Both the position numbers and the translations under genes were made by a program. Shown here one piece after another: positions 7,911-30,978 of a stretch of 33,789 nt of DNA. Location: the IMG/VR virus record IMGVR_UViG_3300023174_000419, positions 1 through 33,789 of that record; one strand, given 5' to 3'. The notes beneath the pieces were generated by a model, which did not search any database, was not told where the DNA came from, and was given only the letters and a program-made list of their open reading frames with translations. This DNA is from a virus. Position 1 is the stretch's first letter, and every line of letters begins with the position of its first letter.

Positions 7911-7931
7911 TTTGACACGCCATGCGCGGGC

Positions 7932-8840: not shown

Positions 8841-9719
8841 ATGGCAAACAGCCTCGCAACAACGAGCAACGGCAAAGTCGTGGCGCAGCGCGCTCTCGAA
8901 TTGCTGGTTGAAAACTACTCATGGATCGCTTCCGGCGTTTCCGATTTCTCGGACGCTACCGCCCGCAAGGGTGACGCGATCGTAACCCACACCGTCTCCA
9001 TCCAATCCGCCTCGGATTATTCCAGCACGGCCGGATACGTGGCAGGCGATGCAACTCAAACCGATGTGGTTGTCACACTGTCAAATTTCAAACACGTCTC
9101 CTACGCTTTGAATGATGACGAGCGCACCAGCTCCTCGATCAACTTGGTCGAGCGCTTTGCAGCGCAAGCGGCCCACGCTCTCGGAAAGAGCATGATTGAT
9201 ACCGTTCTCGCGTTGGTCACCAACACCAACTACACCACGACCGCCACCATCGCGGCCGGTGCAGTGACCTTTGGTTCCATCGTCGACATCGCGGCTCAAC
9301 TCAACACCGCAAAGGCTCCTATGGGTGGACGGTTCGCCGTTCTCAGCCCCACCAACTACGCCAACCTTTCCAAGGATAGCGTTGTGGTGGCAAACGGCCA
9401 GCGCTCCACCGACCTAGTCGGCGGCGCCAGCCTCGGCGAAGTTCACGGCGTCAGCATCTATAACTATCCTTCTTTGCCCTCTGCGGTATCGAAAGGATTC
9501 ATGGCCCAACAGGAAGCGATCATCGTGGCGGCTCGTCTGCCCGAAATCCCGAATGTTGAGTTCAGCGGCACCGTTGCCAACGTGACGGAAGCCAAGAGCG
9601 GTCTGTCGCTCCAGGTTCGCGAGAGCTACTCGCTCGTGACCGGCAGCGTCCAGCGCACCTACTGCCTCATCTACGGTGCGGCAAAGGGATCGGCCGGTTC
9701 GCTCGTTCGGATCGTGTAA
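8841..9719 (+). CDS. Major capsid protein
   Basis: 292 residues, without membrane segments or obvious catalytic motifs, rich in Ala/Thr/Val as usual for coat proteins. The LSPTNYANLSKDSV segment and the position directly after the protease-scaffold gene fit an HK97-fold shell protein. AAGGA at 8830-8834 is a good ribosome binding site, one of the best in the window, in keeping with high expression. A strong hairpin follows the stop. Family assignment is by context; the fold was not tested. Confidence 0.83.
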   Translation: MANSLATTSNGKVVAQRALELLVENYSWIASGVSDFSDATARKGDAIVTHTVSIQSASDYSSTAGYVAGDATQTDVVVTLSNFKHVSYALNDDERTSSSINLVERFAAQAAHALGKSMIDTVLALVTNTNYTTTATIAAGAVTFGSIVDIAAQLNTAKAPMGGRFAVLSPTNYANLSKDSVVVANGQRSTDLVGGASLGEVHGVSIYNYPSLPSAVSKGFMAQQEAIIVAARLPEIPNVEFSGTVANVTEAKSGLSLQVRESYSLVTGSVQRTYCLIYGAAKGSAGSLVRIV

Positions 9720-9739: not shown

Positions 9740-9773
9740 GCCCGGACGCATCGGGGGGTGCGTCCGGGCTTTC
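9740..9773 (+). terminator. Strong hairpin, probable terminator after the capsid gene
   Basis: GCCCGGACGCA (9740-9750) pairs perfectly with TGCGTCCGGGC (9759-9769) around an 8-nt G-rich loop, followed by TTT. The T-run is short, so termination may be partial or the stem may protect the 3' end of capsid mRNA. It separates the head module from the glycosyltransferase cassette. Confidence 0.7.
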
Positions 9774-9786
9774 CCACTTTAAAAAT

Positions 9787-11934
9787 ATGAATAACCCCCT
9801 AGTGTCTCTTGCTTTAATCGTCGGCCCGAATGAGGGCGACATCCTTAAACGCCTTATCCATTCTGCCCGCGACCTATGGGACGAGGTGGTCGTGGTGGCG
9901 GCAGTCGGCAAAAATGAGGCGCACAGTGTGCGTATTTGCGCTCAGGAGGCCGCTGGCGAGGCTTTGGTCTGGGGGGAATACCAGAACAGCCCAGACCACA
10001 GGGACTGGCCCCATATCGATAATTTTGCCGCTGCCCGTAATCAGGCGTTTAACCTAGCGAAAGGCAAGTACGTTATCTGGGCAGATTGCGATGACTTGTT
10101 CGACGGCGACCAGGCTAAGATCCACCGGCAGGTTATTGAGGAACGGGAAAAAGTAGACAAAGGCTGGGAAATCCTAGTCACCCGGTACGATGTGCAAAAT
10201 AGTGGGATGCGGCAAAACCGCAGAGAGAGGATCTTCCGACGGCAGGCCGACGGGTTCCTGCCGGCTATCTGGGAACGTCCAATTCACGAGCGGGTCAAGC
10301 CGATTGAAAAAATGGAAGTCGGATTGGCAGATCATCTGGTGATTGTCCATGCCCCCAACAACTGCAAAAAAAACTCAAGCGAAAGAAACAAGCGAATCCT
10401 AAACAGCGTCTTAGAAGGCGCTGGCATGAACTGGTACTACATCGGCATGGAATCGTTTTTGCGGAACGATTATCAAAAAGCCATCGGCCCTGTCCTTCTT
10501 GCCTTAGAGCATCCTGATCTAGGTATTACCGAACGCTACCAGCTCTTGTGCATGGCTGGCGTGATGTGTGCCGATCCAGCCAAACGCAGAAAATATCTAG
10601 GCGAGGCGGTGATGATACAGCCCACGCGGCGCGAGGCGTATGGCCACTACGCAACGCAACTAATGGACGACGGAAACTACTATGAGGCAGTGCGCTTACT
10701 TCAAATGATTATGACACTGACGCAGCCGGCAGGAGTTGTCTGGAATCTGGACGCCAAGTGGTACGGCAACATGCCACACTTTTTACTGGAACAATCGCTC
10801 CGTGTAGTCGGCCAAACAGCCGACGCAGATCGATGCCTAAAAGAGGCTTTCCGCGCAGCTTGGGGTCAAGTCACGATCATCTATCAGGGGGATCTGCCTG
10901 ACGTAGTTCGCACATCAAAAATGATGATGGACACGGCAGATCAACCCGCTGGCCTGCAACATCTTTTCATCACAAACCCAGGTGAGGACAAGTTTGCAAA
11001 GCGGCTGAACATTTGCACGAGCGTTGAGGACGCGATCAGCAAAACCTTGGGCAGGATCTTGCTGCACATCAAATGCGGAAAAGAAGTTGTCGTGCCTAGC
11101 TTGCGTTGGGATATGGATCTTCTGTCACAGGGCACACTGCCAGTCGGCGCAACACGCTTGCCAGATCCGATCGATCACAAGGGCAAAGTCATCGTCGGCC
11201 TTACCACCACGCCGACGAGAATCGGTAAGATCATGCCTACAATTCAGAGCTTGCTTACACAGTCTCGCCCAGCGGATCAGATCATTTTGTCTGTGCCTGA
11301 GAAACTGGCACGCACAGGAGAGCGTTTTGGCGACATGCCAAAAGAGATATTGGATCTGGCTGAAGCTGGTAAATTGCAGATTCACCGCACGAAGGACTAC
11401 GGGCCTGCGACCAAGTTCATCGGCCCGCTGGAAGTTGGCGGAGATCCTGACGACAAAATTTGCTGGCTGGATGACGACATACTCTACAGCCCACTGCTTT
11501 TGCAGACCCTCGCCGAAGAACTAGATACAAGACCCAAAACGGCGCTAGGCGTCTGCGGATTTTTTATGACAGGCGCTACTGGCTACGCCATCGCCCCAGA
11601 TCACGGCGGCCAAGCCGAGATACTGGAAGGATTTGGCGGCGTGATGTGTCGTCGTTCGGACATGCCGAAAGCCGATCTGTGGCCAGCTATCCCAGCCAGC
11701 GAGTTTGCTGGCTTGAGTGCAACAGCTCGCGCCCGTTTTCTTGCCGACGATTATATGATCAGCACGGAACTGCGGAAGGCTGGGACAGCTACGCTTGTCT
11801 GCAACACGCCTGAATTAAATCGTGGAAACTCACTCAAAATTAGGCCAGAAGGACTAGGCGCTGACGCTTTGCAAAACAACAAAGGCACAGGCGGGAACCT
11901 TGCAGCCTACGCCTTGCTCAAGGCGAATGGATAA
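9787..11934 (+). CDS. Two-domain glycosyltransferase (GT-A fold) with TPR-like linker
   Basis: 715 residues. The N-terminal domain (about 1-230) is a family-2-type transferase with a DCDD metal/nucleotide-sugar motif at D100-D103. A helical repeat region resembling TPRs follows (about 210-340). The C-terminal domain (about 455-715) starts with a beta strand TTTPTRI and carries a second acidic motif LDDDI at D562-D564. It would transfer two sugars, or extend a chain, onto phage or host surface molecules. ATG 9787 is preferred to the longer open frame, which overlaps the capsid gene and the hairpin. It is inserted between head genes and head-tail connectors, with two further modification genes. 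Confidence 0.85.
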   Translation: MNNPLVSLALIVGPNEGDILKRLIHSARDLWDEVVVVAAVGKNEAHSVRICAQEAAGEALVWGEYQNSPDHRDWPHIDNFAAARNQAFNLAKGKYVIWADCDDLFDGDQAKIHRQVIEEREKVDKGWEILVTRYDVQNSGMRQNRRERIFRRQADGFLPAIWERPIHERVKPIEKMEVGLADHLVIVHAPNNCKKNSSERNKRILNSVLEGAGMNWYYIGMESFLRNDYQKAIGPVLLALEHPDLGITERYQLLCMAGVMCADPAKRRKYLGEAVMIQPTRREAYGHYATQLMDDGNYYEAVRLLQMIMTLTQPAGVVWNLDAKWYGNMPHFLLEQSLRVVGQTADADRCLKEAFRAAWGQVTIIYQGDLPDVVRTSKMMMDTADQPAGLQHLFITNPGEDKFAKRLNICTSVEDAISKTLGRILLHIKCGKEVVVPSLRWDMDLLSQGTLPVGATRLPDPIDHKGKVIVGLTTTPTRIGKIMPTIQSLLTQSRPADQIILSVPEKLARTGERFGDMPKEILDLAEAGKLQIHRTKDYGPATKFIGPLEVGGDPDDKICWLDDDILYSPLLLQTLAEELDTRPKTALGVCGFFMTGATGYAIAPDHGGQAEILEGFGGVMCRRSDMPKADLWPAIPASEFAGLSATARARFLADDYMISTELRKAGTATLVCNTPELNRGNSLKIRPEGLGADALQNNKGTGGNLAAYALLKANG

Positions 11935-12601
11935 AACGCTCACCATATCTGGCTACAACCGGCCGGACTATTTTGCCCAGGTAATCAAGGCGCTGGCTTG
12001 GTGCGACGGGGTGGGCGAGTACGAGATCACGGCCATTCTGGATCCGTCTGACAAAACGGCAGAGCTTTCTGAAATTGCAAAAGGGCACGGCATTGGCGTT
12101 CACATTCCAGATCATCACATGGGATGCGGATCTGCCATTCAGTACGCGATGACGTACGGGTTCAGAAAATCGGATTATCACATTCATTTGGAGGACGACA
12201 CCGTTCCCAGCCCAGACTGCTTGCGTTGGTTTGAGTGGGCAGGGCAAAACGCTGGCTCAAAAGTGCTGACGGTATCTGGCTACAATCAACACGGCGGTGA
12301 CGCAGCAAACGACGCCAGCGGATTCAGAAACTGGTTTACCCCTTGGGGATGGGCGACTTGGCGAGATCGATTTGAAAGACATCTGATCACAGCTTGGGAT
12401 TGTAACTTTTGGGACGGCTCCGTTCAGCGAGTCAGGGAACAGACTGGCATGGGAGAACTATTCCCGCACGTCAGTCGGATTCAAAACATTGGTGCAGAGG
12501 GCGGCACGTTTTGTCCAGGGCCAGAGTTTCACAAAGAACATCAACACTCCACCAGCGTGGCCAGAGCCAAGGAAACAAAATGGAAAAACTACAGCACCTA
12601 A
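11927..12601 (+). CDS. Glycosyltransferase (GT2/GNT-I-like)
   Basis: 224 residues. An N-terminal SGYNRPDYF strand begins a GT-A fold; HLEDDTV (H87-V93) contains the acidic D90-D91 motif that holds metal and nucleotide-sugar; WGWATW near the middle is characteristic of bacterial transferases of this group. It overlaps the preceding gene by 8 bp and the following one by 22 bp, so the three are made together. The acceptor is unknown; capsid or tail proteins, or host cell-surface glycan, are possible. Confidence 0.82.
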   Translation: MDKTLTISGYNRPDYFAQVIKALAWCDGVGEYEITAILDPSDKTAELSEIAKGHGIGVHIPDHHMGCGSAIQYAMTYGFRKSDYHIHLEDDTVPSPDCLRWFEWAGQNAGSKVLTVSGYNQHGGDAANDASGFRNWFTPWGWATWRDRFERHLITAWDCNFWDGSVQRVREQTGMGELFPHVSRIQNIGAEGGTFCPGPEFHKEHQHSTSVARAKETKWKNYST

Positions 12602-13131
12602 ACATTGGCGGTGAGGACTGGTTCAGCTTTCCAGATCTGTACCGGCGCCTAGTGGCCGATTGCCCGATGGATGGAAAAATCGTGGAGGTGGGAAGCTGGA
12701 AGGGGAAGTCTACTGCGTTTCTACTGGTCGAGGCTTGGAACAAATCGCCACGGATTGAGATCTACGCTGTCGACACTTGGCTGGGTAGCGAGGAACACGC
12801 GGGCGAGGAGTGCATTAAGAACGGCACGCTGTACGACGAGTTTCTGGCAAACGTGAAACCAGTCTCCCGCCAGCTGGTGCCGTTACGGATGACGAGCCTC
12901 AAGGGCGCCAACTTCTTTCCCGATCAATGCCTAGACTCCGTCTTTATCGATGCCGCACACGACTATGAAAACGTGAAGGCGGACATCTTGGCTTGGCTAC
13001 CCAAGGTAAAAAAAGGCGGGCTGATCGGCGGGCACGATTATCAGTGCGGCTGGGGCGGGGTAGATTTAGCCGTGCAACAAACCATAGGCGAAGTGGAAGC
13101 GCTAGAAAACTCTTGGCTAAAACAACTTTGA
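12580..13131 (+). CDS. SAM-dependent methyltransferase (class I, Methyltransf_24 type)
   Basis: 183 residues with the class I pattern: motif I VEVGSWKGKST, an acidic end of strand 2 in YAVDTWLG, and FIDAAHDYENV as motif IV followed by GGLIGGHDY. Relatives in this group methylate sugars or small natural products, so a role in methylating the sugars added by the two adjacent transferases is likely. It starts inside the preceding gene, and the in-frame upstream extension from 12409 is an overlap artefact. Its stop codon lies within a TTGACA motif before the next gene. Confidence 0.82.
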   Translation: MEKLQHLNIGGEDWFSFPDLYRRLVADCPMDGKIVEVGSWKGKSTAFLLVEAWNKSPRIEIYAVDTWLGSEEHAGEECIKNGTLYDEFLANVKPVSRQLVPLRMTSLKGANFFPDQCLDSVFIDAAHDYENVKADILAWLPKVKKGGLIGGHDYQCGWGGVDLAVQQTIGEVEALENSWLKQL

Positions 13132-13147
13132 CAACGGGCTTTTAACC

Positions 13148-13456
13148 GTGACCGAACTCCAAACCCTCATGACCACGGGCGTGGCTGATATGATCTCCGC
13201 TTTGCCCACCACCGCCACCATATCCGGCCTAGCCGTTCAGGGCGTCTACACACCCAGCGAACAGACTGCAGAGCTGGGCATGGGCGGATTCGTAAATCCA
13301 CAAAATGCGGAGTTTATCTGCCTGTCGGCCGCCGTCAGCCTGCCCGCACTAATGACGATCGTGACGGTGGGCGGATCGCCTAAAAGACTTACCGGCGTAC
13401 AATCTGACCAAGGCGTCACGACTCTTATCTTGGCAGATCCAGAGGACGTGCGATGA
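13148..13456 (+). CDS. Head-tail connector / head completion protein candidate
   Basis: 102 residues starting with GTG, mostly beta-strand in pattern, no membrane segment. Size and place (after the capsid and before a gpU-sized protein) match lambda gpFII-type joining proteins. No Shine-Dalgarno is seen; TTGACA lies 20 nt upstream and overlaps the methyltransferase stop. ATGA overlap with the next gene. Named by order only. Confidence 0.6.
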   Translation: MTELQTLMTTGVADMISALPTTATISGLAVQGVYTPSEQTAELGMGGFVNPQNAEFICLSAAVSLPALMTIVTVGGSPKRLTGVQSDQGVTTLILADPEDVR

Positions 13457-13851
13457 GCTTACGCCTGACTAGCGAGGACGGCTTGGCCGCCTACCTCACG
13501 GCCGCCAGCAAACCATCTGGCTTATACGTTCAAGCAGGGCACAGAATTGCGGATCTGCAACTACCCGCCTGCATCGTCCACGCAGAGTCCAGCGTGCCGG
13601 TTGTGGAAGGATCTCTGGCTACCACCCGCAAAGTTACTTTTACTTGTTCAATTATGACGCCTCTGGAAGTGGGCAGCACGGTGACGGCTCATCGGACTAA
13701 CTTCGACTGGCTTAACACAAAATTGGCGGCGGTAACTACCATAGCCGGAGCAACCCTGATGGGCGGCTACTTGGGCGAAGAAAGCACTGGGAGCAACGAC
13801 AAGGTGATGGAAGATTCGGTAAAATTTACCGCCTTCGTCACGCCCAGTTGA
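13453..13851 (+). CDS. Tail terminator candidate (gpU-like size and position)
   Basis: 132 residues, against 131 for lambda gpU. Mixed alpha/beta pattern, with a central long helix (HRTNFDWLNTKLAAV). Tail terminators cap the tube and join it to the head; the position between the connector and tail-tube candidates supports this. No sequence motif proves it. The stop codon overlaps a TTGACA motif before the next gene. Confidence 0.6.
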   Translation: MSLRLTSEDGLAAYLTAASKPSGLYVQAGHRIADLQLPACIVHAESSVPVVEGSLATTRKVTFTCSIMTPLEVGSTVTAHRTNFDWLNTKLAAVTTIAGATLMGGYLGEESTGSNDKVMEDSVKFTAFVTPS

Positions 13852-13870
13852 CACGTAAAGGAACGACAAT

Positions 13871-19719: not shown

Positions 19720-19898
19720 GCCTTGATAAATCCACCCGCCTCTACTACAGGCGCCTTGCAAAAATTGCCGTAGCACAAGTCGAGGAAAAGATAAACGCCC
19801 AGGATGTATATGAATTTTCAATCCCAGGATCCCAATGGTTCGATCCGTCGTTCTTCCCTGGCTTTTTGGATGATCCCGATGAGCTTAGGTCTGATTGA
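19716..19898 (+). CDS. Small acidic tail protein
   Basis: 60 residues, with a basic, helical N-terminus and an acidic, aromatic C-terminus (several Phe, Pro and Asp). Start chosen at the ATGA overlap with the hub candidate rather than the in-frame ATG at 19707. The stop overlaps the TTGACA motif before the large fibre gene. Function unknown; possibly an adaptor or chaperone for fibre assembly. Confidence 0.6.
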   Translation: MSLDKSTRLYYRRLAKIAVAQVEEKINAQDVYEFSIPGSQWFDPSFFPGFLDDPDELRSD

Positions 19899-19919
19899 CA
19901 TGCATGCTGGCAAGTAACC

Positions 19920-23168: not shown

Positions 23169-23834
23169 ATGTCTTTTACCGCATTTACAGCAGTCACAGG
23201 TTACCCACTGCAAGGCATTGATCTCTACCTTATGAGCAGCACAGGAGCCGTATTAAACACACGCTCCAATCTTGAAGTTCGTCACAATGAAACTAATAGA
23301 TTCTTTGCGGTACCTCACAGCCCGTCATTGAGTTTTAGAAATTTGTATCCAGGCGCAAATTTTGAATCTAACTTTATGAGCATAGCTACAAACGGCAGTG
23401 TCTTTAGCGTATACGGCCGCCACTTTATGATTAGCGCAACTATTGCTGCTAGAACGCTTGAAAATAGTGGTGATTACGCATTTTATGCCTCCACAACAAC
23501 CAAGATAGTTGACTCAGCTCTTTTTCACAATTCCCCAGAAAACTCAATCAACTACCCAGGTCAATCCCAAAAAAACGTCGGCACCTTTTGTACAAATGTA
23601 GCTCAATTTGTTGTTACGAGTATGAGTTCTCAGGTTCTCGAATTATCCCGATCCAGCCTAGTAGCAGGAGGCGACGGCAGCGTGCCACTTGTAGCCCAAG
23701 TTATGTACGTTGCTGGGGTACAATTTGGCGGAGGTTTTGAGCCAAACAGGTTTCAAGGAACAGTGAGCACCATATTTTCGCAGCCATTTGATATCAAATA
23801 CGTTGCGCCTCTGCATCGCACCTTGGCTTATTGA
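23169..23834 (+). CDS. Fibre-region structural protein, unknown
   Basis: 221 residues, beta-rich, with many Ser, Asn and Phe. It starts 1 bp after the preceding gene and ends inside a TTGACA motif. The C-terminal halves of this and the preceding protein have a similar style (ending near residues predicted to form beta strands), so distant duplication is possible but not shown. Confidence 0.6.
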   Translation: MSFTAFTAVTGYPLQGIDLYLMSSTGAVLNTRSNLEVRHNETNRFFAVPHSPSLSFRNLYPGANFESNFMSIATNGSVFSVYGRHFMISATIAARTLENSGDYAFYASTTTKIVDSALFHNSPENSINYPGQSQKNVGTFCTNVAQFVVTSMSSQVLELSRSSLVAGGDGSVPLVAQVMYVAGVQFGGGFEPNRFQGTVSTIFSQPFDIKYVAPLHRTLAY

Positions 23835-23850
23835 CAAGCCTCAGTTTCCT

Positions 23851-30820: not shown

Positions 30821-30978
30821 GGTAACATTTGGGCAGTTTAGCGCAATAATATACAATGACCCCCCAAAGCATAATAGATCAAATCGAATCAGGTAATTGT
30901 ACCGTGGGTTCAAATCCCACCCCGTCCGATGCTTATGGTTGCAAGGACTTACGCCGAAATGGTAACACGGTAGTAACA
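30821..30978. repeat. GGTAACA repeats flanking attP, possible integrase arm sites
   Basis: GGTAACA occurs at 30821-30827 and 30961-30967, and AGTAACA at 30972-30978, on both sides of the tRNA-like core. Short direct repeats at such distances resemble arm-type integrase sites. The 7-mer is too short to be conclusive. Confidence 0.35.
30892..30928 (+). other. attP: attP-like core: 3' part of a type II (serine-like) tRNA
   Basis: GGTA-ATTG-TACC (30892-30903) folds as a long variable arm, GTGGG-TTCAAAT-CCCAC (30904-30920) is a perfect T arm with canonical TTCAAAT loop, CCCGTCC (30921-30927) is the 3' acceptor strand, and G30928 is the discriminator. The long variable arm plus discriminator G point to tRNA-Ser. 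No matching GGACGGG 5' acceptor strand or anticodon arm is found upstream. This is what a phage carries to rebuild a tRNA gene after integration, so it marks attP rather than a host gene. The surrounding 283 bp (30812-31094) hold no gene. Confidence 0.8.

What the first reader, a model, noticed from the sequence alone, without database searches (positions are those of the whole stretch)
9787..13131. Glycosyltransferase-glycosyltransferase-methyltransferase cassette inside the structural operon
Three overlapping genes (a two-domain GT, a GT with WGWATW and a SAM methyltransferase) sit between the capsid gene and the head-tail connectors, bounded by a strong hairpin upstream and a TTGACA start downstream. 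The late position suggests they decorate virion proteins, or remodel host surface glycan at late times, with methylated sugars. I know of no standard name for this combination at this locus.
Basis: partly seen in the sequence, partly recalled or inferred. Interest (0 to 1): 0.58.

Follow-up and report, generated by a model that had tools for sequence, protein, structure and literature searches.

The report
Swappable sugar-coat locus beside phage capsid
Right after its capsid gene this phage carries soluble sugar-attaching enzymes that look built to put a sugar chain on its own particle; relatives always keep the first enzyme but swap the genes that decide the sugar.

Summary
The three overlapping genes are real (GT1 9787-11934, GT2 11927-12601, MT 12580-13131) and under purifying selection. 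GT1 is a GT-A domain, a TPR array and a second GT-A domain. Its N-half matches enzymes that glycosylate proteins or peptides: GmaR by profile, SunS/ThuS by fold. GT2 is GT13-like (POMGnT1/GnT-I); MT is a Methyltransf_24 protein. GT1 is itself mosaic: its TPR part follows the capsid type, its C-half follows GT2. Best reading: a cytoplasmic system that glycosylates a virion protein, most likely the major capsid protein, with an exchangeable glycan. Target, sugars and benefit are inferred; no glycan was observed. The hairpin is a covarying element of the capsid gene's 3' end, and TTGACA is conserved but has no -10 partner, so neither is a special border of the cassette. Virion glycosylation by phage GTs is known from mycobacteriophages; this is a new variant of a known kind.

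The parts
8841..9719 (+). Major capsid protein gene, the presumed target
   Evidence: phrog_283 major head protein 4.2e-24; target role inferred
9740..9769 (+). 13-bp hairpin with GGGG loop after the capsid gene (capsid 3' element, not a cassette border)
9787..11934 (+). GT1, 715 aa chimeric glycosyltransferase
9787..10374 (+). GT1 residues 1-196: N-terminal GT-A domain, invariant D100, D102, D103
10375..10857 (+). GT1 residues 197-357: TPR-like helices, follow the capsid type
10858..11175 (+). GT1 residues 358-463: small alpha/beta part, zone of the mosaic breakpoint (about 440-480)
11176..11931 (+). GT1 residues 464-715: second GT-A domain, KfiA-like, follows GT2 type
11927..12601 (+). GT2, 224 aa, GT13-like glycosyltransferase with invariant EDD
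12580..13131 (+). MT, 183 aa, Methyltransf_24 methyltransferase (exchangeable slot)
13128..13133 (+). Conserved TTGACA at the junction with the first connector gene, role unknown
13148..13456 (+). c1, head-closure-like gene that ends the variable slot
   Evidence: phrog_82, 0.0068

Best explanation
The locus encodes a soluble, cytoplasmic system that glycosylates a virion protein, most likely the major capsid protein, during late infection. The N-terminal GT-A domain of GT1 puts the first sugar on the protein, guided by its TPR array (inferred from GmaR, SunS/ThuS and FlmG). The C-terminal GT-A domain of GT1 and GT2 extend the chain, and MT methylates a sugar (inferred). Across relatives the capsid-facing half of GT1 stays with the capsid type, while the C-half plus the downstream genes are exchanged as a module, changing the glycan and so the particle surface. 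Shown here: gene content, domain folds, constant position, modular exchange, purifying selection. Inferred: target, sugars, order of reactions, and benefit (receptor tuning, shielding or stability).
For: GmaR profile match 1.7e-12 over residues 3-210 and TPR matches at about 215-327. SunS/ThuS are the top Foldseek rows (2.7e-13), VIA Z 16-17 over residues 2-296. GT2: POMGnT1 1e-8 by profile, top by fold. GT1 directly or closely after the capsid gene in 26 of 26 and 36 of 36 loci with at least 300 nt downstream. TPR type against capsid type: 13 of 14, 10 of 10, 16 of 16; AMI TPR-capsid 0.83, C-half-GT2 0.91, TPR-C-half 0.51; TPR-capsid stays correlated given the catalytic part (0.64) or portal (0.54). 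15 arrangements behind GT1 in 58 intervals. dN/dS 0.03-0.09. No clear membrane segment in 277 slot ORFs.
Against: No glycan or activity was observed. L014 has the window's capsid (100%) but a different TPR type. TPR also follows portal and connectors beyond the capsid (partials 0.48-0.63), so the capsid cannot be singled out, and linkage of neighbouring genes explains part of the signal. The GT1 model has pTM 0.50 and the SunS/ThuS alignments have rmsd near 13, so domain arrangement is uncertain. The capsid has no obvious Ser/Thr-rich tail by eye.
Confidence: 0.6

Rival explanations
1. The enzymes remodel host surface glycans (LPS or capsule) late in infection or in lysogens, for superinfection exclusion or receptor masking.
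For: The phage is temperate (integrase); some slot enzymes (epimerases, heptosyltransferase-like, GT47) resemble surface-polysaccharide genes; GTs of temperate phages can change host serotype (passage).
Against: No clear membrane protein in the slot. GT1 is fixed beside the capsid gene. Its fold and TPR array resemble protein and peptide GTs. The TPR part follows the capsid type.
Confidence: 0.2
2. The enzymes glycosylate phage DNA to block restriction.
For: MT hits a PHROG labelled DNA methyltransferase (3.4e-21); DNA glucosylation is a known role of phage GTs (passages).
Against: MT's Pfam match is Methyltransf_24. No base-hypermodification enzyme among the proteins searched (not every ORF was searched). 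GT2 resembles glycoprotein GTs. Co-segregation with the capsid type is not expected.
Confidence: 0.05
3. The target is a virion protein other than the capsid protein (portal, connector or tail), or a small peptide made by the phage as in glycocins.
For: TPR also correlates with portal, c1, c2, c3 and c5 given the capsid (0.48-0.63); SunS and ThuS modify peptides (names of rows).
Against: The capsid gene is the constant neighbour; where connectors are of one type (c1-c5 type A) but capsids differ (A or B), the TPR type follows the capsid, though portal differs too.
Confidence: 0.15

Closest known systems
Mycobacteriophage virion glycosylation (Che8, Corndog, Myrna; Freeman et al. 2023, seen only through citing passages)
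   Same: Phage GTs said to glycosylate capsid and tail tube. Che8 genes 108-110 hold GT parts and a methyltransferase part (gp108 is a GT-MT fusion by PHROGs) in a row, so GT+GT+MT is not new.
   Different: Che8's GT genes lie near the genome end, not beside the capsid gene. GT1 has no usable match to them (5.8 bits); GT2 has a weak partial match to gp110 (13.7 bits) in a three-protein test. No swapped slot was examined there.
GmaR, Listeria flagellin GlcNAc transferase
   Same: N-terminal GT followed by TPR domain; sequence match over residues 3-210; protein substrate (passages).
   Different: GmaR has an antirepressor domain instead of a second GT and acts on flagellin.
SunS/ThuS glycocin S-glycosyltransferases
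   Same: Top fold matches of GT1 over GT-A plus following helices.
   Different: Peptide substrates; no second GT-A domain; about 14% identity.
FlmG, Caulobacter flagellin O-glycosyltransferase
   Same: TPR domain binds the protein target and gives specificity in the cytoplasm (passages).
   Different: TPR first, then a GT-B domain; working analogy only.
POMGnT1 / GnT-I (GT13)
   Same: GT2 matches by profile and fold; EDD motif invariant in A2.
   Different: Eukaryotic Golgi enzymes; GT2 is a small soluble phage protein, 16-18% identity.
Verrucomicrobia phage P8625
   Same: Nearest annotated capsid (25.8%) and same gene order terminase, portal-like, protease, capsid.
   Different: No GT annotated between capsid and connectors; PHROGs searches of five next genes give none.

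Membership tests
Phage virion glycosylation system (as in mycobacteriophages) | Sugar on virion proteins | not testable with these tools
   Needs mass spectrometry
Phage virion glycosylation system (as in mycobacteriophages) | Phage-encoded GTs (with or without MT) | tested here: met
Phage virion glycosylation system (as in mycobacteriophages) | Homology of GT1 to the Che8 GTs | tested here: not met
   5.8 bits at best with gp108, over 30 residues
GmaR-like protein GT | GT2-fold domain followed by TPR | tested here: met
GmaR-like protein GT | Transfer of GlcNAc to a protein | not testable with these tools
   Biochemistry needed
SunS/ThuS S-glycosyltransferase | Fold of GT-A plus helical domain | tested here: met
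   Foldseek 2.7e-13, Z 16-17 but rmsd about 13
SunS/ThuS S-glycosyltransferase | Glycocin precursor peptide gene nearby | not tested
   No dedicated search was made
GT13 | GT13 fold and EDD motif | tested here: met
   Pfam GNT-I just below its cut-off
GT13 | GlcNAc transfer from UDP-GlcNAc | not testable with these tools
   Biochemistry needed
Gtr-type seroconversion cluster | Membrane flippase and polyprenyl-sugar GT (recalled) | tested here: not met
   277 slot ORFs scanned, highest hydropathy window 1.61 (crude method); no such family

The most novel reading that the evidence does not exclude
The locus is a 'glycotype' switch of a virus particle: a chimeric GT1 whose TPR half is co-adapted to the capsid and whose other half, with the genes behind it, is traded like an O-antigen or flagellin glycosylation island, so that phages with nearly the same capsid display different sugars.
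Probability: 0.4. Interest if true: 0.8.

Novelty: new variant of a known kind. Interest (0 to 1): 0.58.

Why it matters
If right, a group of uncultured phages, possibly of Verrucomicrobiota, builds a variable glycan on its own particles with a compact cytoplasmic pathway. It gives a natural set of TPR-guided glycosyltransferases paired with different capsids, which makes the match between a TPR array and its protein target testable, and it would carry virion glycosylation beyond actinobacteriophages with a visible route to surface variation.

Tried and rejected
The hairpin as a cassette border was rejected: it covaries but goes with the capsid gene. TTGACA as a sigma-70 promoter was not supported: no site reported there, and at 19-21 nt before the start codon a normally spaced -10 would fall inside the gene.

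Host search: two genome-contig scans (GT1 alignment; capsid alignment) confirmed no relative. The only host hint is the 25.8% capsid match to a Verrucomicrobia phage. ARAGORN found no tRNA gene in the window.

DNA modification and seroconversion were considered and ranked low (see rivals). Homology of GT1 with the Che8 GTs was tested and not found; Corndog could not be fetched.

Literature: ten searches, listings only except where passages are cited. None of the listings showed a paper on a swapped glycosylation locus beside a phage capsid gene; most subscription papers are not in that library.

Limits of the counts: 43 loci with a truncated interval were left out of the 58; duplicates were removed only if identical; classes rest on tblastn to one representative each. 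2 of the 15 arrangements differ from another only by an unassigned stretch. Several loci lie on the same contigs as loci. Loci with under 300 nt downstream were set aside (12 of 38, 4 of 40). Allele types use 80% identity single linkage on the 48 GT1 sequences with over 85% coverage and no internal stop. dN/dS used pairs with dS 0.15-1.5 only. The covariation test used 12 of 57 distinct hairpin sequences. An earlier count gave slightly wrong type counts; those here are recounted.

Full report
Observation. The window is a whole virus record of 33,789 bases. They lie between a major head protein and a weak head-closure match, in a phage with an integrase. Median dN/dS of the cassette regions is 0.03-0.09, so they are maintained.

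What the proteins are. GT1 has a Glycos_transf_2 match at its N-end. A profile of 31 relatives matches GmaR, the Listeria flagellin GlcNAc transferase, at 1.7e-12 over residues 3-210, and TPR proteins over about 215-327. The AlphaFold2 model (mean pLDDT 80.9, pTM 0.50) has SunS and ThuS, glycocin S-glycosyltransferases, as its top Foldseek rows. VIA-align gives them Z 16-17 over residues 2-296, with rmsd near 13, and gives the C-terminal part KfiA at Z 17.2, rmsd 2.4. GT2 matches POMGnT1 (1e-8) and GnT-I (2.4e-6) by profile and both by fold. MT is a Methyltransf_24 protein with only weak solved relatives.

The locus is variable. GT1 follows the capsid gene in 26 of 26 loci of the capsid scan and 36 of 36 new loci of a wider scan that have at least 300 nt downstream; the two sets share contigs. 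In 58 distinct complete intervals there are 15 arrangements behind GT1. Main group (46): GT2-MT in 21, GT2-MT plus an unassigned 317 nt in 3, GT2 with another putative methyltransferase in 7 (1 of them with an unassigned 323 nt), FkbM methyltransferase alone in 5, GT2 with a GT7-epimerase fusion in 4, GT34 in 2, and four single cases. Distant group (12; GT1 about 28% identical): a four-gene set with transketolase-like, radical-SAM and E1-like genes in 6, a methyltransferase with a heptosyltransferase-like gene in 5, FkbM with two GTs in 1. Family names come from Pfam, except the L006-type methyltransferase, the L041 methyltransferase and 'heptosyltransferase-like', which had no Pfam match and are my reading of the sequences.

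GT1 is mosaic. For window against L024, 40-residue blocks are 0.45-0.82 identical up to about residue 480 and 0.85-1.00 after it, with capsid identity 0.56; for L024 against L141 the N-half is 0.85-1.00 up to about residue 440 and the rest 0.60-0.91, with capsid identity 0.99. TPR type follows capsid type in 13 of 14 (A), 10 of 10 (B) and 16 of 16 (C and D together); the 5 remaining sequences are of rarer capsid types. Adjusted mutual information is 0.83 for TPR-capsid (n 45), 0.91 for C-half-GT2 (n 38), 0.51 for TPR-C-half (n 48) and 0.44 for C-half-capsid (n 45). Linkage alone would favour the catalytic part, which lies nearer the capsid gene; instead the capsid follows TPR given the catalytic part (0.64) and not the catalytic part given TPR (-0.16). 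Against this, L014 breaks the rule, and TPR also follows portal and connectors given the capsid (0.48-0.63).

Mechanism. The simplest reading is a cytoplasmic pathway: GT1 docks on a virion protein by its TPR array and adds the first sugar, its second domain and GT2 lengthen the chain, and the slot gene finishes it, here by methylation. TPR docking on the target is shown for FlmG (passages) and proposed for GmaR (passage). No convincing membrane segment was seen in 277 slot ORFs, which speaks against a lipid-linked surface pathway. The capsid protein as target is inference.

Signals. The hairpin at 9740-9769 is real, with 8 of 12 pairs showing compensatory changes, and belongs to the 3' end of the capsid gene. 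TTGACA at 13128 is present in 44 of 44 relatives, although the genes before it and its frame differ, and it also lies upstream of prot (52 of 68), c3 (43 of 43) and t3 (6 of 6), but not of the ten other genes tested. Its role is unknown.

Known and new. Virion glycosylation by phage GTs is known (passages), and Che8 has GT and methyltransferase parts in a row, so the combination as such is not new. What the ten searches did not show is a TPR-guided GT beside the capsid gene with an exchangeable glycan half. P8625, the nearest annotated phage, has no such cassette.

Noticed in passing
7912-7917, 13128-13133, 13848-13853, 19895-19900, 23831-23836: TTGACA is the most enriched hexamer before gene starts (5 of 38 windows, expected 0.35) and is conserved before prot, c1, c3 and t3 in relatives, in or near the upstream gene's stop; too close to the start codon for a normal promoter.
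   Followed up: partly
30895-30930: A stretch that looks like the T-arm and 3' end of a tRNA gene lies next to the integrase, a likely attP core (read by eye).
   Followed up: no
L062:9032-12013: In the distant group the slot holds a transketolase-like, a radical-SAM and an E1-like gene, a possible route to an unusual sugar.
   Followed up: no
L102:5335-13060, L104:5332-12291: Other phages carry relatives of MT and GT2 side by side in the reverse order; in L102 they sit in a larger set of GTs with an IMPDH-like gene, near a clamp loader and a sigma factor.
   Followed up: partly
8841-9719: The capsid gene shows a higher median dN/dS (0.32) than terminase or portal (about 0.04); the pairs were not restricted to one type, so saturation may bias this.
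   Followed up: no
L017, L019, L020, L034, between the slot gene and c1: About 320 nt of unassigned sequence lies before c1 in these four loci.
   Followed up: no
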